From positions 1,172,001-1,236,000 of the forward strand of contig LR882958.1 of the NCBI GenBank assembly GCA_904830895.1: a stretch of DNA of 64,000 nt, given 5' to 3'. This DNA is from Planktothrix rubescens CCAP 1459/22 (lineage in GTDB: Bacteria > Cyanobacteriota > Cyanobacteriia > Cyanobacteriales > Microcoleaceae). The notes beneath the pieces are model-generated. The model saw only the letters and a list, made by a program, of their open reading frames with translations, had not been told where the DNA came from and made no database searches. Of the stretch, positions 1,763-9,754 are shown in pieces (the stretch's first letter is position 1; the number at the start of each line of letters is the position of its first letter). The translations under genes were made by a program, and so were the position numbers.

Positions 1763-3259
1763 TTATCGTTTCTTACCATGATTCCTTAATCCCAGCAACC
1801 GGATAACTAACCCCGTTAACCCCGCCCCGATCAAGCCTATGATCAGGCTCAAAAACAGTGAAATAAAGGGCATTAACGCAGATTCTGGAATTGTCAAACT
1901 CCTCAAAACTTGCCCTAAATTCTGCTCTACAAGGGTTTTTGCTTCCTCTGATTTGATAATAGTAACAGGTGCAACAACATTGGGGAATTGTCCAGAAATC
2001 GAAGCCGTTACAGAAGCCGCAGCTAAACCCGCACCGACAATACCGAGTGTATTTTGAAATGTGCGATCGCTCTTTGCTTCTCTGACTTGCAAGTTAACTC
2101 GAATTAAGTTGACTGCAACTTCTAGCATTTTTAACCCAGCACTCAGATTTTCGGAGTCTTTGCGAACTTGTTTTAAGTATTTATTTCGAGCGTCGGAATG
2201 AAACTGCTCTAAGCATTTTACTTCATATTCTGGGTTTTTTTCACATACCTTAGCAACTAATTCTTTAAGTTGTTGGCGGTAGTTATCCAGATTAACTTCA
2301 ATCGTACTTCTCTGAAATTCTAAATAACTGAGATTGATGGCATAATCAGAAAATAGATTGTCAGCATCACTGACTTTTTGACTAAGTTGGCTCAAATTAT
2401 ACCCTTCGTATCCTTGAGTTTTAAAGTCTTTGACGTAACTTTGAACCTCTACAAATTTAGCTTCTAAATCTCGTTTAACCACCCGACTTTTTACATAAGC
2501 CCAAAGAATTTTATGGCGATGACAAAACAATTGCATCCAGTGATCAATTAATTCTGCTGCGTTTTCCATTGCCGTTAAATTAGGATATAATATAATAATT
2601 ACATGAGGATTATTTTGCTTTAAATTGTAGGGTGCTTTTTTAGGAGTATCGTTTAAATTATGGGGATTCCATTCAAAGAATCTTCCCCCTAATAACTTTC
2701 CCTCACCTGCGGGTTTTTCTTGACAATCTAGTTCTTTTCCTACTAGCAAATTGTAACATTTTTGAGCAAGATTTTTAACATCATCTGATCCCATTTTAAT
2801 ATCTAAATCTGAAGGGAGTGTACCACTAATTAACCAAGTTTGCCCTAAGCTACCCCCTTGATTGTTGAGAACCTGATCAACTATAATTTTTTTAAGCGTT
2901 GTTATTTCTTGAATATCAGTAGGAGAGGTGCGATTGCTCACCGAACAGTCAACCATCAGCGCATAAGTATCACTCAGTTGCACGGGATAGTAATATCCTT
3001 CATATTTAGCTTCATATTCAGGCGGAAGGTTGAGCGTTTCTGTAAATTCGCCTTCTTCTGTTAATAACTGTACAAATTCTGTTTCCCACTCCATTTTTTC
3101 AGGCGGGGGAGATGCTTTAATCTTGTTTTGTAAGGCGGGAGGCAATTTATTTAAAAATACTAGCTCATTCTCTTTCAGAGTAGCCAAATCCTGCCCTAGT
3201 CCCTGACGCAAATCGTAGAGATAGAGGTCAATTGTGGGATAAATCAGATGATCTGTCAT
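1763..3259 (-). CDS. C-terminally membrane-anchored protein of the caspase/ATPase unit
   Basis: The family of this 498-residue protein is not recognised. It has a soluble N-terminal half, a helical charged middle (about 230-390) that could be coiled coil, and two hydrophobic stretches near the C-terminus (about 405-425 and 458-488) followed by the basic tail RNHGKKR. This predicts a cytosolic protein tethered to the membrane by its end. Its start overlaps the stop of the gene at 3256-3771 by 4 bp (ATGA), so the two are translationally coupled. Together they stand back to back with the caspase/actin-ATPase gene at 3877, which suggests a shared system. A role as membrane effector or anchor is inference only. 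Confidence 0.7.
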   Translation of the reverse strand: MTDHLIYPTIDLYLYDLRQGLGQDLATLKENELVFLNKLPPALQNKIKASPPPEKMEWETEFVQLLTEEGEFTETLNLPPEYEAKYEGYYYPVQLSDTYALMVDCSVSNRTSPTDIQEITTLKKIIVDQVLNNQGGSLGQTWLISGTLPSDLDIKMGSDDVKNLAQKCYNLLVGKELDCQEKPAGEGKLLGGRFFEWNPHNLNDTPKKAPYNLKQNNPHVIIILYPNLTAMENAAELIDHWMQLFCHRHKILWAYVKSRVVKRDLEAKFVEVQSYVKDFKTQGYEGYNLSQLSQKVSDADNLFSDYAINLSYLEFQRSTIEVNLDNYRQQLKELVAKVCEKNPEYEVKCLEQFHSDARNKYLKQVRKDSENLSAGLKMLEVAVNLIRVNLQVREAKSDRTFQNTLGIVGAGLAAASVTASISGQFPNVVAPVTIIKSEEAKTLVEQNLGQVLRSLTIPESALMPFISLFLSLIIGLIGAGLTGLVIRLLGLRNHGKKR

Positions 3260-3771
3260 AGTAGAGGAGGTAATGTTGGTGGTTGAGTATCTGAATCAGC
3301 AGAAAATTGTGACAACATTTCTAATAGACGCTGAAACAGACTTTTGCTAACTTCCGGCGGATTATCACTTTTGAGAATCGGGACAACAAGATAATTAATA
3401 ATCGTGTGACTTGGAGATTGCTGTGATTTTTTAGGTTTAGGGCCTAACGTAGTAGGAGTTTGATTACTAGGCGGGAGTCTTTCTAATACTTCTTCTGAAG
3501 TTGGCAAGTAATCTAAATTTTCGCCATTTTCTGTTGCTAGAAAACTAATTAATGCTGTTTGATACTTGGTAAAACTTTCATTTAATTTGGGGTTTGAGTT
3601 AATCACAGACATTAATTTAGCTTGGGTTTTGTCCCTCATTTCAGGATTGAGTTGAAGCTGTTCTCCTATGGTAAAAAGTTCCTCTTGCTCGTTAGAGTTG
3701 AGGGTGACATCTGAATCTCTAATTGCCAGAAGCAGGGCCAGGAGAGTAGGGAGAGCAGGTGGTTGGCTCAT
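3256..3771 (-). CDS. Small partner protein, unknown function
   Basis: The 171-residue protein has a compact helical N-terminal domain (about 1-85, with ALLLAIRDSDVTLNSNEQEEL), a proline-rich linker, then IINYLVVPILKSDNPPEVSKSL and a disordered PPTLPPLL end. No catalytic motif or membrane segment is visible. It is the first gene of a two-gene operon; its ATGA stop overlaps the start of the membrane-anchored protein. The size and alpha-helical N-terminus would fit an adaptor or effector-associated domain, but I do not recognise the family. Confidence 0.65.
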   Translation of the reverse strand: MSQPPALPTLLALLLAIRDSDVTLNSNEQEELFTIGEQLQLNPEMRDKTQAKLMSVINSNPKLNESFTKYQTALISFLATENGENLDYLPTSEEVLERLPPSNQTPTTLGPKPKKSQQSPSHTIINYLVVPILKSDNPPEVSKSLFQRLLEMLSQFSADSDTQPPTLPPLL

Positions 3772-3876
3772 GCTGGGAGTAAAGTAAGTTAGAATTGCTC
3801 TTAATTATAGTGGACGGAGAGTAATGCTGATATACTCAGAGTGAACGTCGCTCCCTGTTACTAAACCCGCCTGCCA
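3772..3876. promoter_or_regulatory. Shared divergent promoter region of the caspase/ATPase unit
   Basis: This 105-bp gap separates two divergent transcription units. A TATACT at 3831-3836 could be the -10 box for the rightward caspase gene; no good -35 box is seen at the right spacing. The short shared gap suggests co-regulation of the two arms. Assignment of exact promoter elements is weak. Confidence 0.35.
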
Positions 3877-6800
3877 ATGAACCCCACTAACCGAAAGGCT
3901 CTTGTCATCGGTATCAATCGCTACCCCGAATTAAATGATGGCCATTTAAAAGTCTCGGCTGACGATGCAGAGGCGATCGCGCAATTACTAGGAACCTATG
4001 GCCATTTTCATCCTATATACCGCTTTCCCGAAGGTTTCTTACAAGATCGAGGAGATTTGTACCCTTGCGTTGCTCCTACACATGACTTAAACAATTTTAC
4101 AACCGAAGATTTAAAAACCGCGATCGAAAAACTCTTTAAACCCCAAACAGATATCCCTCATACCGCCTTACTTTTCTTTGCAGGTCACGGACTTTTTAAT
4201 GATAATGGTAAACTGGTTTTAGCAACCAGCGAAGCTGGTTATCCTAACCAAGAATGGGGTATATCTTTAGAATGGTTATGTGGTCTTTTAAAAGACAGTC
4301 CAGTTAAACAGCAAATTGTTTGGTTAGATTGTTGCTATAGTGGTGAATGGATAGAGTTAGCAAAAACACAACTGCATAATTCTGATAAACAGCTATTTTT
4401 TATTACAGCTACTACCAGCTACGAATCCGCATTTGCTGATGACAAACACGGAATTTTAACCAAAATTATTTTGGAAGGTTTAGATCCCAGTAAAGATAGT
4501 TATGAGGGATTAATTACCCATACTAAACTAGAACGTTTTATTAAGACAAATCCACCTAAAATTGCTCAAAAGATTCTCGTTTATTCCTCCAGCAATAGCG
4601 AAATTCATCTGACTTGCACCGAAAAATATAAATTAAGGTCGCTGATTCTCGAATCTAACTACGAGCGATCGCAAACGCAGCCAACCAACCAAAAATCTGA
4701 CGTTCCAAGCAACAACTCCACTGCTGGATCTGATATTAAGATCCTCTATAACGCCCTAACAAAACTAGATTATAGTAAAGCACAGGCAAAATCTTCTAGT
4801 GTGCGTTTAATTCCTAGTCCTAACAAAGAAACAGTTCGTGACTTGTTGATTATCGACCCAGAAATAGCCAGAGCTTGGAGTGAATCACCCCAAAATATTG
4901 TGATTTATGAAGACCAAACCTTGGCTTCTCTAAAAAATGTTCGCTGGATTGAGTCGAAAGATTTATTTTTGCCAGAATTCATCTTTGTAGATCTCGAAGA
5001 TGCTTTACCGGGAGCTTTTCTTCCCGATGGTACTCAAATCAACTTCAACGGTCAGAGGATCACACCTTTAATTCCTCTCAATCCCATTCTACTAGACTAT
5101 TTAACTCCAGAAGACTTAATTAAGAAAATTAAGTTCACACCTATCAACGGAAGTGAAGGCCCATTGGTAAGAGTAATTATAGACTTGCCTCTCTCCGGTT
5201 TGAAGAATAATGACAAACAGCCGCAGAACTATCACATCTACAAAGACTACCCAATTAAAGAAGAAAATGCTTTAACTGAAGTACCTGTTTTAGAAGTGTG
5301 GCCGCGTTTTCGGGCTGAGGGTTGGAAGGAGTATTATGCGTTTTACTACGATGGAGAGTATGGAGAAGAAACTTTCCAAGTTAGTTTACCGGAGGCAAAA
5401 GAACCCCATATTTTTCGAGAAGTTCGTGGTTCCTATCAAATTACCCGCCTAGAAAAGTTTCCCAGTTTCATTAACTGCCAGGATCAAGCTAGAAATACTA
5501 TTGGTCTGATTCTGCTAAAAACACCAGAGAATATCAAGCTTAATGCTGCTTCTTGGACTGTAGGAGTTGATTTTGGAACTTCTTTCACTAATGTCTACGT
5601 TAACAACAAAGGAATAGTCGAACCACTGCTACTGGAGAATCTGCACTTAAAGATAGCGGAGGCAAACATAGACACTCGCAATCCGGTAATGTTTGAACAT
5701 TTTATTCCAGAAAGATTCATCCCGCTTGAAAAGCCCCTACCCCTGGCCAGCGTACTAACAACTAGGGGAAAACCTAATACCAAAGCAGGGCAAGAACGTC
5801 CGATTTATGACGGTCGGATTTATATTCCAGGCTGGAACAGCTTTAATTCTGAAAATAGTTGGATAGAGACAGACCTTAAGTGGGAAAATCTCACTTTAAA
5901 TCGGTTGTTTCTAAAACATCTAGCTCTACACATCTCCGCTTTAGCTGCGAAAAACGGTGTTAAGCAAATTCAATGGTCTATCTCCTACCCATCTGCTTTT
6001 TCTAATAGTGACAGAGCTAAGTATGTTCAAACCTGGCAAAACTTAACTCAGGAATTACAAGAAAAAACAGGAATTATTCATAATAGTCCTGTACTAAATA
6101 ATTTGGATTACTTCCGAACTGAGAGTTTAGCCTTTGCTCAATATTTTGCCGATCTTGAGGATCTTAGCTTAGTCAATGCAACTTGTATTGATATGGGAGG
6201 AGGAACTTCAGATATCTCTATTTGGGAAAACAACAAACTGGTTCATCAATGCTCTATTCAGTTAGCAGGAAGAGACTTGTTTTCTCAATTTTTAGAACTA
6301 AAACCGGAGTTTTTAGACCAAAACTTACAATTAAATAATTGGGGATTCAAACATTTAAAAGGAAGATTTTTTATAACCGCACTGGATCATTTTTTGCGAA
6401 TGAATTCAGACTATTGGCTGAAAAATCAAAGAATATTTGTAGAAGATAATTCAGAATTTCAAGGACTGCTCCGACTCATTGCGATTGGTTTTTCTGGGTT
6501 GTACTATTACGTAGGAACAATTCTGGGAGTGCTCCACGATGAGGGAAAATATCGTCGCCGTGAAATTACCCCTGTTTATATCGGTGGGAATGGTTCTCGA
6601 CTGTTAAACTGGTTGGCTATAGGGGGGCAGTTTGATCGTGATTCTGAGGTCAATCACTTACTCAGTCGGATGCTGAGTGCAGGTTCCGGTTTCGATGATA
6701 TAGGAGAAATCACACGATTGAGTCAGAGACCGAAAGACGAGGTATGTTGCGGATTGGTTTTAAGTAGTACCAAGCTTCAAGGACTAACGAAAAGGACAAA

Positions 6801-7176
6801 AGATCCACTGATTGCAGGAGAAGATTGTGAAGTGAATGGCAATCTGATTAGTTGGAGAGATCGCTTAGAGTTGGAAGGCAATATTGAGCAATTCCAAATT
6901 CCTGAGTTTGAGCAGCTTTCAAAGTTTCTGGATGAATTCAATTTAGCATTGAAAGAATTAGAAATTGAAGGATTGAAACCGATGAGAGGTTTCAAGGCTG
7001 GTGTAGGCTTAGAAGCTGACTATAGCGAAAGACTCTGGCGCGAAACTAAAAGAGAGTTAACTAGGGTGACGTTAACTATTAAGGGCGAATCAGATAATAT
7101 CCGTGTGGAACCACCCTTTATATTGGGGCTGAAGGCTTTGTTGCGGGTTTTAGGTAAGGAGTGGGCTGGCAAATGA
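3877..7176 (+). CDS. Caspase (peptidase C14)-actin/HSP70-type ATPase fusion
   Basis: This 1099-residue protein joins a metacaspase-like protease to an actin-fold ATPase. Residues 1-250 are a caspase p20-like domain beginning KALVIGINRYPEL, with the catalytic pair His104 (FFAGHG) and Cys153 (DCCYSGE). Residues about 285-545 are an unassigned region (from ALTKLDYSKAQ). Residues about 560-1095 carry the actin/Hsp70 nucleotide signatures: phosphate-1 VDFGTSFTNVYV (562-575), phosphate-2 IDMGGGTSDIS (771-781) and adenosine YIGGNGSR (near 901). Prokaryotic caspases fused to NTPase modules are known from predicted conflict and cell-suicide systems; here the ATPase would gate the protease. No signal peptide is seen, so it is cytosolic. 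The start follows MNPTNRKALVIG, typical for the family. Confidence 0.85.
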   Translation: MNPTNRKALVIGINRYPELNDGHLKVSADDAEAIAQLLGTYGHFHPIYRFPEGFLQDRGDLYPCVAPTHDLNNFTTEDLKTAIEKLFKPQTDIPHTALLFFAGHGLFNDNGKLVLATSEAGYPNQEWGISLEWLCGLLKDSPVKQQIVWLDCCYSGEWIELAKTQLHNSDKQLFFITATTSYESAFADDKHGILTKIILEGLDPSKDSYEGLITHTKLERFIKTNPPKIAQKILVYSSSNSEIHLTCTEKYKLRSLILESNYERSQTQPTNQKSDVPSNNSTAGSDIKILYNALTKLDYSKAQAKSSSVRLIPSPNKETVRDLLIIDPEIARAWSESPQNIVIYEDQTLASLKNVRWIESKDLFLPEFIFVDLEDALPGAFLPDGTQINFNGQRITPLIPLNPILLDYLTPEDLIKKIKFTPINGSEGPLVRVIIDLPLSGLKNNDKQPQNYHIYKDYPIKEENALTEVPVLEVWPRFRAEGWKEYYAFYYDGEYGEETFQVSLPEAKEPHIFREVRGSYQITRLEKFPSFINCQDQARNTIGLILLKTPENIKLNAASWTVGVDFGTSFTNVYVNNKGIVEPLLLENLHLKIAEANIDTRNPVMFEHFIPERFIPLEKPLPLASVLTTRGKPNTKAGQERPIYDGRIYIPGWNSFNSENSWIETDLKWENLTLNRLFLKHLALHISALAAKNGVKQIQWSISYPSAFSNSDRAKYVQTWQNLTQELQEKTGIIHNSPVLNNLDYFRTESLAFAQYFADLEDLSLVNATCIDMGGGTSDISIWENNKLVHQCSIQLAGRDLFSQFLELKPEFLDQNLQLNNWGFKHLKGRFFITALDHFLRMNSDYWLKNQRIFVEDNSEFQGLLRLIAIGFSGLYYYVGTILGVLHDEGKYRRREITPVYIGGNGSRLLNWLAIGGQFDRDSEVNHLLSRMLSAGSGFDDIGEITRLSQRPKDEVCCGLVLSSTKLQGLTKRTKDPLIAGEDCEVNGNLISWRDRLELEGNIEQFQIPEFEQLSKFLDEFNLALKELEIEGLKPMRGFKAGVGLEADYSERLWRETKRELTRVTLTIKGESDNIRVEPPFILGLKALLRVLGKEWAGK

Positions 7177-7188
7177 GCAAATAAAAGC

Positions 7189-7416
7189 GTTGACTACCGT
7201 GCCAAACGTGCCGAATATTGTGTTTTAAATATTCCTGAATATTGGATTGTCGATCCGTTACAAGCAAAAATTATTATTTTTACTCTTTCCGACATAAACC
7301 GGGTTTCTCTGAAAGATTGTCGCTCGGAAACTAGAGATTTATGCAGAAACCCGGTTTCTAGGTCGCTTGTGGGTTGTCGAGAATTATCGAGTCGAGTTAG
7401 TTTGATTAATTGCTAA
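7189..7416 (+). pseudogene. Uma2-family (DUF820) nuclease remnant overwritten by a repeat
   Basis: Translation from 7189 gives DYRAKRAEYCVLNIPEYWIV, then DPLQAKIIIF, the conserved C-terminal end of Uma2-family restriction-like nucleases (the DYxxKRxEY and IPEYWIVDP signature). No start codon or N-terminal domain precedes it. After about 7290 the frame runs into the 176-bp repeat and stops at 7414-7416. It is a dead fragment lying directly after the caspase/ATPase gene. Confidence 0.8.
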
Positions 7417-7471
7417 ATTTCAATAGTTTAATAGTTGCTTTTCATGCCTTGAGTGATAGAATTAAGGAAAC
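7296..7471. repeat. 176-bp dispersed repeat, copy A
   Basis: This segment matches 9862-10037 over its full 176 bp with scattered differences. It begins with AAACCGGGTTTCT, has a second inverted AGAAACCCGGTTTCT inside, and ends with a stretch that is the 3' end of the histidine kinase gene in copy B. The kinase end therefore appears to have been copied to this site. Confidence 0.85.
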
Positions 7472-7568
7472 TGCGATCATCCTGTACCTAAAGGTTATTT
7501 AAGCTATGACGGAAATCATTTTCCTAGTAGAACCTGATGTTGAAGGGGGGTATATTGCCCAAGCATTA
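7442..7568. repeat. 127-bp direct repeat, left copy (hicB promoter and 5' end)
   Basis: The 127 bp are nearly identical to 8272-8398. They include the upstream region and first 21 codons of hicB. The two copies are 830 bp apart and bracket the VapBC-like gene pair exactly. Confidence 0.9.
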
Positions 7569-7625
7569 AAATGCTATGATGGGATTAATCTAAATCATCA
7601 AAAAACTTGCTTGAGAGGATTTTAA
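7506..7625 (+). pseudogene. Truncated hicB copy
   Basis: An ATG at 7506 starts the same 21 codons as the intact hicB at 8336 (MTEIIFLVEPDVEGGYIAQA), after which the match ends and 18 unrelated codons lead to TAA at 7623-7625. The shared leader means it may still be transcribed and may lead expression of the VapB-like gene that starts 6 bp later. Confidence 0.8.
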
Positions 7626-7630
7626 TCATT

Positions 7631-7864
7631 ATGATTCAAGAAATCAATGCCATATTTGATGGTAAATCTCTGCAACTGGAATCTCCCTTAAACCTAGATG
7701 TCGGTACAAGGGTTAAAATTATTGTTGAAACAATATTACCCCAAAAACAGCCCACTAAAACATTTCTTGAAACTGCTCAATCTTTACAGTTACAAGGGAA
7801 TCCAGATTGGTCTGAGAAAATTGATCAGTATTTATATGGGGAAACTGTTTCTGATCATGAATGA
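7631..7864 (+). CDS. VapB-like antitoxin
   Basis: The 77-residue protein begins MIQEINAIFDGKSLQLESPL, an AbrB/VapB-like or DUF104-like N-terminal strand pattern, followed by a helical tail ending GETVSDHE. The preferred ATG is 7631 because GAGAGG lies upstream and the homology-like start MIQEI fits; an in-frame start at 7607 would add eight unlikely residues. Its stop overlaps the toxin start, so the pair is coupled. The antitoxin role rests mainly on that linkage to the PIN gene. Confidence 0.75.
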   Translation: MIQEINAIFDGKSLQLESPLNLDVGTRVKIIVETILPQKQPTKTFLETAQSLQLQGNPDWSEKIDQYLYGETVSDHE

Positions 7865-8270
7865 AGTTTTTTTAGATACTTCTTTTGCGATCGCGCTTTC
7901 TTCAATTACAGATCAAAATCATGCAATGGCTGTTCAATTGGCTGATCAACTGCAAGCTAGTCAAGCCCGTTTAGTCACCACTCAAGCTATTTTACTAGAA
8001 ATTGGTAATGCACTTTCTAAATCTAAATACAGAATGGGTGCTATCCAACTGTTAGAATCCCTTGAAGCCGATCCCCATGTAGAAATTGTATTGTTGACCA
8101 CTGATTTGTATATGGCTGGATTCAATTTGTTTAAACAGCGAAAAGATAAAGAATGGGGTTTAGTAGATTGTCTGTCATTTATCGTCATGGGGAATCGAGG
8201 AATTACTGATGCTCTAACTGCTGATACTCATTTCCAGCAAGCCGGATTTCGAGCATTACTAAAAAACTAG
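7857..8270 (+). CDS. VapC-like PIN-domain ribonuclease toxin
   Basis: The 137-residue protein MNEVFLDTSFAIAL carries the acidic PIN set: Asp7 (FLDTS), Glu in LLEIGNAL, Asp in GLVDCLSF and Asp in LTADTHF, which bind divalent metal for RNA cleavage. PIN toxins of this type cut tRNA or rRNA. The ATG at 7857 overlaps the antitoxin stop by 8 bp. All four key acidic residues are present, so the toxin looks functional. The pair is flanked by 127-bp direct repeats carrying the hicB start, which marks it as a recent arrival. Confidence 0.88.
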   Translation: MNEVFLDTSFAIALSSITDQNHAMAVQLADQLQASQARLVTTQAILLEIGNALSKSKYRMGAIQLLESLEADPHVEIVLLTTDLYMAGFNLFKQRKDKEWGLVDCLSFIVMGNRGITDALTADTHFQQAGFRALLKN

Positions 8271-8271
8271 A

Positions 8272-8398
8272 TCATGCCTTGAGTGATAGAATAAAGGAAA
8301 CTGCGATTATCCTGCACCTAAAGGTTATTTAAGCCATGACGGAAATCATTTTCCTCGTAGAACCTGATGTTGAAGGGGGGTATATTGCCCAAGCATTA
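8272..8398. repeat. 127-bp direct repeat, right copy
   Basis: This copy of 7442-7568 contains the native hicB leader and first codons and continues into the intact hicB gene. Confidence 0.9.
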
Positions 8399-8545
8399 GG
8401 GGAATCAATTATTACCCAAGCTGATGATTTAGAAAGCTTAAAAAAAGAAATAAAAGATGCCGTTCACTGTCATTTTATTGATGAAACATTACGTCCTAAG
8501 ATCATCCGACTGCATATTGTTCAGCAAGAGGTAATTGCTTTATGA
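8336..8545 (+). CDS. hicB: HicB-family antitoxin
   Basis: The 69-residue protein has the short HicB fold (EIIFLVEPDVEGGYIAQALG, then SLKKEIKDAVHCHF), a partial RNase H-like beta-sheet domain without the usual C-terminal DNA-binding helix. It neutralises HicA. The stop overlaps the hicA start by 4 bp (ATGA). The antitoxin-first order is the reverse of the classical hicAB locus but common in cyanobacteria. Confidence 0.88.
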   Translation: MTEIIFLVEPDVEGGYIAQALGESIITQADDLESLKKEIKDAVHCHFIDETLRPKIIRLHIVQQEVIAL

Positions 8546-8784
8546 AATTACCCAGAGATGTATCAGGTCAAGATTTAGTAAAAGCCCTCAGAAGGTTGGG
8601 TTATGAAGTTAGCCATCAAACCGGGAGCCATATTCGATTAACTACACAAGAACAGGGGGAACATCACATTACCATTCCGGCTCATAATCCTTTAAAAGTG
8701 GGTACATTGAATGCAATTTTAAAAAATGTGGCTAATCACTTAAAGTTAGAGCGAGAAGAATTAATCAGTCTATTATTTGAGTAA
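8542..8784 (+). CDS. hicA: HicA-family mRNA interferase toxin
   Basis: The 80-residue double-stranded-RNA-binding-like protein MKLPRDVSGQDLVKALRRLG has the catalytic histidine in HQTGSHIRL and the family pattern HITIPAHNPLKVGTL. HicA cleaves mRNA independently of ribosomes and is inhibited by the HicB encoded just upstream. All family positions are kept, so it looks intact. Confidence 0.9.
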   Translation: MKLPRDVSGQDLVKALRRLGYEVSHQTGSHIRLTTQEQGEHHITIPAHNPLKVGTLNAILKNVANHLKLEREELISLLFE

Positions 8785-8824
8785 TCAATTAAGTATAGTC
8801 TTGATACTGGTAAAAGTCCCTATT

Positions 8825-8883
8825 ATCAACATACTGATGTTAATATAACTGCCTTGATTTTGTTTATGAATTGAAGCGATCGC
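8825..8883. repeat. 59-bp direct repeat left of orphan parD
   Basis: The 59 bp from ATCAACATACT to GCGATCGC recur at 9268-9326 with few changes. Together they bracket the ParD-like gene. The unit ends in a HIP1 octamer. Confidence 0.8.
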
Positions 8884-8936
8884 GCCTTTCATCTAACCTA
8901 TGATATAATAGAGAATATTATCCTCGATTAAAACTT

Positions 8937-9188
8937 ATGACCAACTTAAATCTTTCTATTCCCGAATCAATGAATCACTTTATTCAGGAGCAAGCAAATC
9001 AACAGGGTTATCCCAGTCCCAATGACTATATTTGTAGTTTAATTATGCAAGCACAAAAGCAAGTGGAACAAGAGCGATTAGAGCAATTATTAATAGCAGG
9101 ATTAGAGAGTGGAACATCTATCGAAATTACGGATGAATGGTGGGAGAATAGAAGAAATCAATTAATTCACCAAGTCCCAATTTCTTAA
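8937..9188 (+). CDS. ParD-like antitoxin, orphan
   Basis: The 83-residue protein starts TNLNLSIPESMNHFIQEQ and continues QGYPSPNDYICSLI, the ribbon-helix-helix pattern of ParD/CopG antitoxins, then a helical C-terminal arm with TDEWWENRRNQL that normally contacts ParE. No ParE toxin follows; the next 270 bp hold a repeat and no gene. It may be a relic, or it may regulate a distant parE. Confidence 0.82.
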   Translation: MTNLNLSIPESMNHFIQEQANQQGYPSPNDYICSLIMQAQKQVEQERLEQLLIAGLESGTSIEITDEWWENRRNQLIHQVPIS

Positions 9189-9267
9189 CGGGTTATCAGC
9201 CATTTAATCCTGTTTATTATTATAGTATAGTCAGGAGGCGATCGCTATGTCTATCGCATTGCTAATA

Positions 9268-9326
9268 ATCAACATACTAATGTTAACATAACTGCCTTGA
9301 GTTGGTTTTTGAATTGAAGCGATCGC
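9268..9326. repeat. 59-bp direct repeat right of orphan parD
   Basis: Second copy of 8825-8883. The toxin gene expected after parD may have been lost during the event that made this duplication. Confidence 0.8.
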
Positions 9327-9460
9327 ACCCTTAACCCCACCCATTTATAAGAGAAAAAGTACAATTTCCAGTTAACCTTAATCAATATCAACCTAAAAAT
9401 ATGCTATAATTGTGCTGAATTAAACTACCAATAAAATCGACTACTCAACAGATCTCAAAA

Positions 9461-9754
9461 ATGAAACTCAAACAACATTTACAGAAAAACCGAGAGGCAA
9501 TCGTAGAAATTGCGGCCAAACATGGAGCCTTTAACGTGCGGATTTTTGGCTCAGTCGCTAGAGGAGAAGAAACCGAAAATAGTGATATCGACTTTTTAAT
9601 CGATTATGATTTATCTAAAATTTCTCCTTGGTTTCCCGGAGGATTATTGATGGATTTACAAGATTTACTCAAATGTAAAATTGATATTGTCACAGACAAA
9701 GGTTTGAGTCCTTTAATTAGAGAAAAAGTTTTAAAAGAGGCAAAAATATTATGA
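9461..9754 (+). CDS. MNT-type minimal nucleotidyltransferase antitoxin (MntA)
   Basis: The 97-residue protein has the nucleotidyltransferase signature GSVARGEETENSDIDFLID: GS followed by paired aspartates, with a third aspartate in KIDIV. MntA-type enzymes silence the HEPN toxin HepT by adding AMP groups to it. Its stop overlaps the HEPN start by 4 bp. Since the toxin next door is truncated, this antitoxin appears to have lost its partner. Confidence 0.88.
   Translation: MKLKQHLQKNREAIVEIAAKHGAFNVRIFGSVARGEETENSDIDFLIDYDLSKISPWFPGGLLMDLQDLLKCKIDIVTDKGLSPLIREKVLKEAKIL

What the first reader, a model, noticed from the sequence alone, without database searches (positions are those of the whole stretch)
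1763..7176. Caspase-actin/Hsp70 ATPase fusion with a divergent membrane-anchored pair
A single protein joins a complete caspase catalytic dyad (His104, Cys153) to a full set of actin/Hsp70 nucleotide motifs, with a 260-residue unassigned region between. It stands back to back, over 105 bp, with a coupled operon for a small adaptor-like protein and a protein with a membrane-anchored C-terminus. Protease, ATP switch and membrane partner together look like an abortive-infection or programmed-death system. Caspase conflict systems are known in filamentous cyanobacteria, but I do not know this exact three-gene set as described.
Basis: partly seen in the sequence, partly recalled or inferred. Interest (0 to 1): 0.85.

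Follow-up and report, generated by a model that had tools for sequence, protein, structure and literature searches.

The report
Caspase fused to an Hsp70-like switch
In a filamentous cyanobacterium, a cell-death-type protease has taken over the ATP-driven switch of an unrelated membrane system and sits beside a channel-like membrane protein, probably as a self-destruct or defence device.

Summary
One intact 1099-residue gene joins a C14 caspase (His104/Cys153) to an actin/Hsp70-fold ATPase, divergent over 105 bp from two coupled genes: small (171 aa) and a 498-aa protein with two C-terminal hydrophobic segments. The 'unassigned' region plus ATPase is a module that elsewhere sits in a tubulin/FtsZ-like operon with another N-terminal domain (113 of 122 loci; FtsZ-like match in 108). 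Here a caspase replaces that N-terminus, and no FtsZ-like gene was found in the genome. The small/membrane pair goes with caspase-fold proteases: CHAT in 16 of 20 loci fetched by the membrane protein alone. In a sister species the same pair and far flank enclose a caspase-nSTAND1 gene, so an Hsp70-type ATPase stands where a STAND ATPase stands there. A second caspase-Hsp70 fusion exists in Microcystis viridis, elsewhere in the tree. The full three-gene set was seen only in the window. The membrane partner's predicted fold resembles CorA weakly and lacks GMN. Most likely a caspase conflict/cell-death system with a swapped switch; function is inferred, not tested.

The parts
3892..4527 (+). C14 caspase domain of the fusion (residues 6-217; His104, Cys153)
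   Evidence: Pfam 9.1e-13; dyad residues kept in 21 of 22 each
4615..4731 (+). low-complexity linker (about residues 247-285), between caspase homology and Hsp70-module homology
   Evidence: caspase matches end mostly near residue 250; similarity to operon Hsp70 proteins begins near residue 285 by eye
4732..5556 (+).
   Evidence: alignment A1, 21 sequences; predicted beta-rich
5557..7173 (+). actin/Hsp70-fold ATPase (about residues 561-1099) with phosphate-1, phosphate-2 and adenosine motifs
   Evidence: motif positions; Foldseek to Hsp70/MreB; keeps 72 of 74 columns invariant in 19 relatives
3877..7176 (+). whole caspase-Hsp70 fusion gene, 1099 aa
3256..3771 (-). small companion, 171 aa, no significant family match
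   Evidence: family alignment A3
1763..3259 (-). membrane companion, 498 aa: alpha/beta domain, three long helices, two C-terminal hydrophobic segments; CorA-like predicted layout
1991..2047 (-). first hydrophobic segment of membrane companion (residues 405-423)
   Evidence: hydropathy 1.54
1802..1858 (-). second hydrophobic segment (residues 468-486) followed by basic tail
   Evidence: hydropathy 2.45
3772..3876 (.). 105-bp divergent intergenic region; DNA identity of the pair with five congeners stops at 3814

Best explanation
A caspase-based conflict/cell-death system whose regulatory ATPase has been swapped. In the usual form a caspase-fold protease (C14 with a STAND ATPase and repeats, or TPR-CHAT) goes with a constant pair: a small protein and a membrane protein with a CorA-like layout. 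Here an actin/Hsp70-type ATPase, taken from a tubulin/FtsZ-like membrane operon, sits in the place of the STAND ATPase. Proposed working: a cue (phage or membrane stress) changes the ATP state of the Hsp70-like domain; it clusters or reshapes and brings caspase domains together; the active caspase cuts or gates its membrane partner through the small adaptor; the membrane is compromised and the cell stops or dies. SHOWN here by sequence: domain make-up, companion association, in-place swap, a second fusion elsewhere in the tree, conserved active-site residues. INFERRED: ATP switching, protease activity, complex formation, pore or channel action, defence role.
For: Pair plus caspase-fold protease: 29 of 34 membrane-protein rows have CHAT (16) or C14 (13) within four genes. 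14 of the 34 rows were fetched through a caspase hit or through the window's own pair or are the window itself, and one locus gives two rows, so the fair figure is 16 of 20 loci fetched by the membrane protein alone: CHAT two genes upstream on the same strand, small gene between. The CHAT profile was built from nine of these 16; Pfam confirms CHAT in those nine. The window genome has 26 CHAT matches, some of them two pieces of one gene, in 5.7 Mb, so a chance neighbour should be a few per cent (estimate). Slot equivalence: beside the pair lie caspase + nSTAND1 + WD40 (L031, L032, L041, L050) or caspase + ATPase + TPR + RelA/SpoT (L035), and caspase-nSTAND1 in congeners G261 and G292. In G292 the same pair (91.5% DNA) and the same far flank (window 7296-8642, 94%) enclose the caspase-nSTAND1 gene. 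Origin: the window's ATPase is sister to a congener's FtsZ-like-operon copy (SH-aLRT 97). Second fusion: Microcystis viridis L064/L163, caspase + HATPase + mid + Hsp70, grouping with M. aeruginosa operon copies (SH-aLRT 100), far from the window. Caspase fused to the membrane gene of the FtsZ-like operon in L193. dN/dS against congeners: membrane gene 0.57-0.82, small 0.42-0.63; three flanking genes 0.03-0.34.
Against: No functional data. The full set is a singleton in what was searched. The same-species genome G291 shows neither fusion nor pair, so the system is dispensable. CorA resemblance is by predicted fold only: two chains at E<=0.001, best E 2.5e-4 with TM-scores 0.22/0.29, membrane part of the model at low confidence, GMN in 0 of 28. 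4 of the 20 loci fetched by the membrane protein have no protease in reach. A CHAT protein, HetF, is in print as a divisome and heterocyst factor, not defence (listing). No substrate or trigger is known.
Confidence: 0.45

Rival explanations
1. Same parts, reversed roles: the CorA-like protein with the small adaptor is the membrane sensor and anchor, and the caspase-Hsp70 protein is the effector, cutting other cell proteins, for example antitoxins of the toxin-antitoxin genes next door.
For: In the EACC1 system the membrane component is proposed as sensor (PMC7159879 passages). PIN- and HicA-type genes lie about 0.5-1.6 kb downstream. A Microcystis caspase is reported to cleave a neighbouring antitoxin (PMC7935541, title and abstract start in listing).
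Against: No association of the TA genes with the pair-protease unit elsewhere was looked for or noticed; nothing shows contact.
Confidence: 0.3
2. A stress or developmental regulator rather than a defence system: ATP-dependent chaperone-protease control of a membrane transporter.
For: HetF, a CHAT protein, acts in division and heterocyst formation (listing); the Hsp70 module's home operon is tubulin-like and probably membrane-associated (PMC2875224 section 6).
Against: Patchy within genus and species, in-place swapping, high dN/dS of the pair, TA-type genes next door.
Confidence: 0.15
3. A chance chimera with no selected function, or an assembly error.
For: Only one genome searched carries this exact fusion.
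Against: It lies on a 5.46-Mb contig of a five-contig genome; uninterrupted 1099-codon frame; 72 of 74 otherwise invariant Hsp70 columns and both caspase residues kept; a second fusion of the same two domain families in Microcystis viridis.
Confidence: 0.07

Closest known systems
EACC1 two-gene caspase systems (Kaur et al. 2020, PMC7159879, 'System 4'; passages seen)
   Same: N-terminal caspase nearest this subtype, with exchangeable C-terminal domains including STAND ATPases; membrane-associated partner
   Different: Partners here are a small protein without a clear membrane helix plus a two-segment CorA-like protein, divergent, not EACC1; an Hsp70/actin ATPase is not named among the domains in the passages seen
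Cyanobacterial tubulin/FtsZ-like - Hsp70-like operon (Tubulin_2; cf. FtsZl1 of Makarova and Koonin 2010, PMC2875224; abstract and section 6 seen; identity with FtsZl1 not tested)
   Same: Residues about 286-1099 are a member of this operon's ATPase family, 73% identical to a congener's
   Different: N-terminal domain replaced by caspase; no FtsZ-like gene at the locus or detected in the genome; section 6 names vWA, GTPase, kinase and OmpA partners, not Hsp70
GAP1-N2 GTPase conflict systems with tubulin or HSP70 (PMC7159879, passages seen)
   Same: Idea that tubulin/HSP70 assemblies stand in for STAND-type switches in conflict systems
   Different: No GTPase gene in the three-gene block; the passages seen do not join HSP70 to a caspase
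TPR-CHAT and caspase-STAND proteins of cyanobacteria
   Same: Share the small + membrane pair
   Different: Their other domains are TPR, STAND, WD40; no actin/Hsp70 fold found in those examined
CorA/ZntB/CmaX channel family
   Same: Predicted layout: alpha/beta domain, long helices, two C-terminal hydrophobic segments, basic tail
   Different: GMN motif in 0 of 28; no Pfam CorA match in the window protein
Bacterial gasdermin systems (recalled)
   Same: Caspase-type protease beside a membrane-acting protein
   Different: Window partner has no gasdermin match and is a helical membrane protein

Membership tests
Orthocaspase / C14 caspase | p20 fold with His-Cys dyad | tested here: met
   Pfam 9.1e-13; His104 and Cys153 in 21 of 22 each
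Orthocaspase / C14 caspase | proteolytic activity | not testable with these tools
   needs enzyme assay
Actin/Hsp70/MreB superfamily | phosphate-1, phosphate-2, adenosine motifs and fold | tested here: met
   Pfam alone stays sub-threshold
EACC1 caspase two-gene system | caspase N-terminus with variable C-terminus | tested here: met
   NF047832 E 1.6e-20, though 73.5 of 140 bits; C-termini vary
EACC1 caspase two-gene system | 5' EACC1 single-TM gene | tested here: not met
   neighbour is divergent; no EACC1 hit in Pfam or NCBIfam for either minus-strand protein; small protein's peak hydropathy 1.34
Tubulin/FtsZ-like - Hsp70 operon | FtsZ-like gene adjacent | tested here: not met
   none at the locus; none found in G000 with two queries, while the second rang in G157
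Tubulin/FtsZ-like - Hsp70 operon | family N-terminal domain of about 270 residues | tested here: not met
   caspase in its place; domain present in 113 of 122 other loci
CorA | two C-terminal TM helices | tested here: met
   two or more hydrophobic segments in 23 of 28 incl. the window; by hydropathy only
CorA | GMN motif | tested here: not met
   0 of 28
CorA | CorA fold | tested here: inconclusive
   first 34 Foldseek ranks are CorA/CmaX/ZntB chains, but only two at E<=0.001 and TM-scores 0.12-0.32
CATRA caspase ternary system | CATRA-N/CATRA-C domains (names recalled) | tested here: inconclusive
   no such hit in the window protein at E<=1; PF20269 rang in 0 of 146 genomes and 0 of 14 controls, so no positive control
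Abortive infection system | protects a population by death of infected cells | not testable with these tools
   needs phage assay

The most novel reading that the evidence does not exclude
A wide class of bacterial death systems pairs a caspase-fold protease with a dedicated CorA-like membrane channel and a small adaptor. Within it the nucleotide switch is interchangeable: STAND ATPases can be replaced by an actin/Hsp70 ATPase captured from a tubulin-like membrane machine. The window would be a filament- or cluster-forming, actin-type analogue of an inflammasome that opens a channel by proteolysis.
Probability: 0.25. Interest if true: 0.82.

Novelty: new variant of a known kind. Interest (0 to 1): 0.62.

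Why it matters
It links two cyanobacterial machines that no title or abstract start in our listings describes as joined: caspase death systems and a tubulin/Hsp70-like membrane operon. The swap at one locus makes a clean test of what the switch domain contributes, since sister species carry the same membrane pair with a STAND switch. The pair itself, a small protein and a CorA-like membrane protein, accompanies CHAT and caspase proteases in many cyanobacterial loci, has no Pfam family that we could find, and could be an overlooked membrane executor or sensor of these proteases.

Tried and rejected
Rejected: a vWA domain in the membrane protein (a DxSxS-like string near residue 97 suggested it by eye; no vWA hit, and the model is CorA-like). 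Rejected: homology of the pair with the two genes that precede Hsp70 elsewhere (similar sizes only; one reads as a multi-helix membrane protein by eye, the other is Tubulin_2). Rejected: the 247-aa L063 gene as a caspase (whole-protein E 7e-4, best domain 0.26). Led nowhere: Pfam on all members of both pair families (only the 25 commonest families are listed), PDB sequence search, PADLOC and NCBIfam for the minus-strand proteins, viral contigs (one weak relative), CATRA-N survey without a ringing control.

What was left out before counts: alignment A1 holds the window and 20 of 22 relatives listed (a truncated copy in L057 and a second copy in L054 left out); A2 the window and 27 of 28 (the L096 fragment left out). 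In the 72-of-74 count the degenerate second copy L059:6952-9285 was left out (it keeps 47 of 72). In dN/dS, pieces with stops or N or under 70% cover were skipped, and the distant L216 membrane gene (ratio 0.19, dS 3.5, saturated) and the non-orthologous caspases (0.30-0.35 where computable) are not in the ranges quoted. The tree left out Hsp70 pieces of 600 residues or less and identical copies. Several loci among the 122 are one place fetched from two collections (L052/L122, L054/L130, L064/L163 for example), so its counts are not independent; the tree holds 97 non-identical relatives, 85 with the family N-terminus and 12 without.
Full report
1. The observation. The fusion is a single 1099-codon frame, the two minus-strand genes overlap by ATGA, and the divergent gap is 105 bp. 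Pfam recognises a C14 caspase over residues 6-217 (E 9.1e-13). NCBIfam places it nearest the EACC1-associated caspase type, at 73.5 bits against a cut-off of 140. In an alignment of 22 caspases of this type, His104 and Cys153 are each kept in 21. The C-terminal half has all three nucleotide motifs. Its model, built from 21 sequences (mean pLDDT 84), finds Hsp70/DnaK and MreB structures, best E 7.7e-8.

2. The Hsp70 part has another home. With the whole fusion as query, 48 of 291 phylum genomes matched at E 1e-10, 92 of 388 order genomes at 1e-40, 33 of 388 class genomes at 1e-60 and 7 of 10 genus genomes at 1e-10; the draws overlap, and at most two candidates per genome were scored in the large ones. 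Apart from the window, every listed match lies within residues 1-303 or begins at residue 224 or later; none spans both parts. Fusions with a distant caspase would not show in this way. The relatives of residues 286-1099 are mostly about 1,090 aa long with a different N-terminal domain. They lie in an operon: a membrane protein of about 160 aa (by eye), a tubulin/FtsZ-like protein of about 500 aa (Tubulin_2, E 2.9e-9 in L051), the Hsp70-like protein, then proteins of about 300 aa (zinc-ribbon-like start by eye) and 460 aa. A scan of the 84,980-species collection with alignment A1 gave 103 relatives, of which 80 were kept. Over 122 loci (with duplicates) 113 have the family N-terminus and 108 an FtsZ-like match. 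In a Syntrophomonadaceae and a Spirochaetaceae MAG the FtsZ-like and Hsp70 parts are one protein (L196, L198). A plasmid of Gloeothece verrucosa PCC 7822 carries the operon, annotated hypothetical apart from a 'tubulin-like' protein.

3. The window copy lost that home. The own genome has one match to the fusion, the fusion itself. Two FtsZ-like queries found nothing in it, and the second rang in the congener G157, with a partial match in G294. In a 98-row quick tree the window's ATPase is sister to G157's operon copy (SH-aLRT 97). It keeps 72 of 74 columns that are invariant among 19 relatives. The joint lies in a low-complexity stretch near residues 247-285.

4. The small and membrane genes belong with caspase-fold proteases. 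Relatives of the membrane protein occur in 34 of 291 genomes, often several per genome. In 20 loci fetched by that protein alone, 16 have a CHAT gene two genes upstream on the same strand with the small gene between; the four without are L078, L081, L092 and L096, the last a 189-aa fragment. The CHAT profile came from nine of these proteins; Pfam confirms CHAT in all nine submitted, with TPR in eight; the other seven rest on the profile. In loci fetched through the caspase, the pair lies beside caspase genes, divergent in L031, L032, L035, L041 and L050 and codirectional in L042. L031, L032, L041 and L050 add nSTAND1 and WD40, L035 an ATPase, TPR and RelA/SpoT domains; L042 has no ATPase hit. 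The own genome holds 26 CHAT matches in 5.7 Mb, some two pieces of one gene, so 16 of 20 is far above my estimate of chance.

5. The swap at one place. Five of nine other genus genomes carry the pair at about 88-95% DNA identity: G157, G261, G292, G293, G294; none is among the listed matches of G291, G295, G296 and G297. In each of the five the identity stops at window position 3814, 43 bp before the small gene. The caspase gene near the pair differs: caspase-nSTAND1 in G261 and G292, a gene with the same first 35 residues in G157 (not domain-scanned), a 617-aa caspase protein in G293, and a 587-aa one in G294 that faces the pair as in the window. In G292 the pair and the window's far flank (7296-8642, 94%) enclose the caspase-nSTAND1 gene, so the same slot holds caspase-Hsp70 in the window, turned round. 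The same-species genome G291 has the left flank (98%) but no listed match to pair or fusion. dN/dS against congeners is 0.57-0.82 for the membrane gene and 0.42-0.63 for the small gene, versus 0.08-0.16, 0.19-0.34 and 0.03-0.10 for three flanking genes; the genome sets differ, but in G292 and G293, which have both, the membrane gene gives 0.64 and 0.62 and the flanking kinase 0.22 and 0.25.

6. It happened more than once. A profile of the 22 caspases found two further distinct links in the 122 loci. It follows a 141-aa gene that looks EACC1-like to me by eye but has no Pfam hit. In the tree it groups with two M. aeruginosa copies that keep the normal N-terminus and FtsZ-like gene (SH-aLRT 100), well apart from the window. 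In Xenococcus sp. MO_188.B8 (L193) a caspase with both dyad residues is fused to the membrane gene of the FtsZ-like operon (C14, E 6.3e-20); the Hsp70 there has a degraded phosphate-2 motif by eye. In Phormidium sp. OSCR (L055) an AAA gene (MoxR-like by my reading) and a vWA_CoxE gene stand just before an N-terminally extended Hsp70-like protein, with the FtsZ-like gene still in the locus.

7. The membrane protein. Its model (mean pLDDT 78) is an alpha/beta domain (1-235) and three long helices (238-422), followed by further helices; from about residue 400 on confidence is low. Two or more hydrophobic C-terminal segments are seen in 23 of 28 members, one in four, none in one, often with a basic tail. 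Foldseek's first 34 ranks are all CorA, CmaX or ZntB chains; the best has E 2.5e-4 and probability 1.00, but only two reach E 0.001, TM-scores are low and rmsd high. GMN occurs in 0 of 28 and no CorA model matched the window protein. I call it CorA-like in layout, not a CorA.

8. How it most likely works. In the EACC1 systems caspases carry many C-terminal domains, STAND ATPases among them, and the membrane component is proposed as the trigger; the same authors treat tubulin and HSP70 assemblies as analogues of STAND switches (PMC7159879, passages only). The window fits that logic: the Hsp70-like ATPase takes the STAND position, and the small/CorA-like pair is the constant membrane part. The direction of the signal, the trigger and the substrate are not shown. 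Whether the membrane protein is executor or sensor is open; I favour executor slightly.

9. Known or new. Two surveys of prokaryotic caspases do not contain the words Hsp70, actin or FtsZ in the main text held, one covering 473 cyanobacterial orthocaspases with 35 accessory domains (PMC8283722, PMC3501461; passages). In the searches no title or abstract start describes the combination; most subscription papers are not held. I therefore rate it a new variant of a known kind. The host family is inferred to be Microcoleaceae because one same-family genome fits an Arthrospira record by length and place.

Noticed in passing
7607-9754: Cluster of small genes just downstream with toxin-antitoxin character: PIN domain (7698-8270) and HicA (8542-8784) by Pfam, others by eye; a Microcystis caspase is reported to cleave a neighbouring antitoxin (PMC7935541, title and abstract start only).
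   Followed up: no
7178-7292 and 1670-1757: Multi-copy stretches at both edges of the three-gene block. 7178-7292 looks by eye like a Uma2-type nuclease gene fragment and matches in five other genus genomes; 1670-1757 contains a short repeat found in tandem elsewhere in the genome.
   Followed up: partly
L035:6995-12733: 1913-aa protein beside a small/membrane pair: caspase + ATPase + TPR + RelA/SpoT + TGS + ACT, a caspase joined to an alarmone-type enzyme.
   Followed up: no
L193:2261-3538: Caspase with both dyad residues fused to the membrane protein of a tubulin/FtsZ-like - Hsp70 operon in Xenococcus sp. MO_188.B8.
   Followed up: partly
L055:3703-10066: AAA (MoxR-like) gene, vWA_CoxE gene and an N-terminally extended Hsp70-like protein in a row in Phormidium sp. 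OSCR, with the FtsZ-like gene still in the locus.
   Followed up: partly
L196, L198: Single proteins of 1660 and 1704 aa joining FtsZ-like and Hsp70-like parts in Syntrophomonadaceae and Spirochaetaceae MAGs.
   Followed up: no
L210:6415-6768 (also L212, L218, L219): A conserved 117-128-aa gene lies between caspase and small genes in four congeners but not in the window.
   Followed up: no
L216:7141-10857: Next to a caspase + small/membrane locus (G530) lies a caspase-iSTAND gene with AAA (MoxR-like) and vWA_CoxE genes, two caspase systems side by side.
   Followed up: no
L059:6949-9879: Second copies of the Hsp70-like gene without the usual N-terminus occur beside the first in several loci; this one keeps only 47 of 72 invariant columns, so it may not be an active ATPase.
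   Followed up: partly
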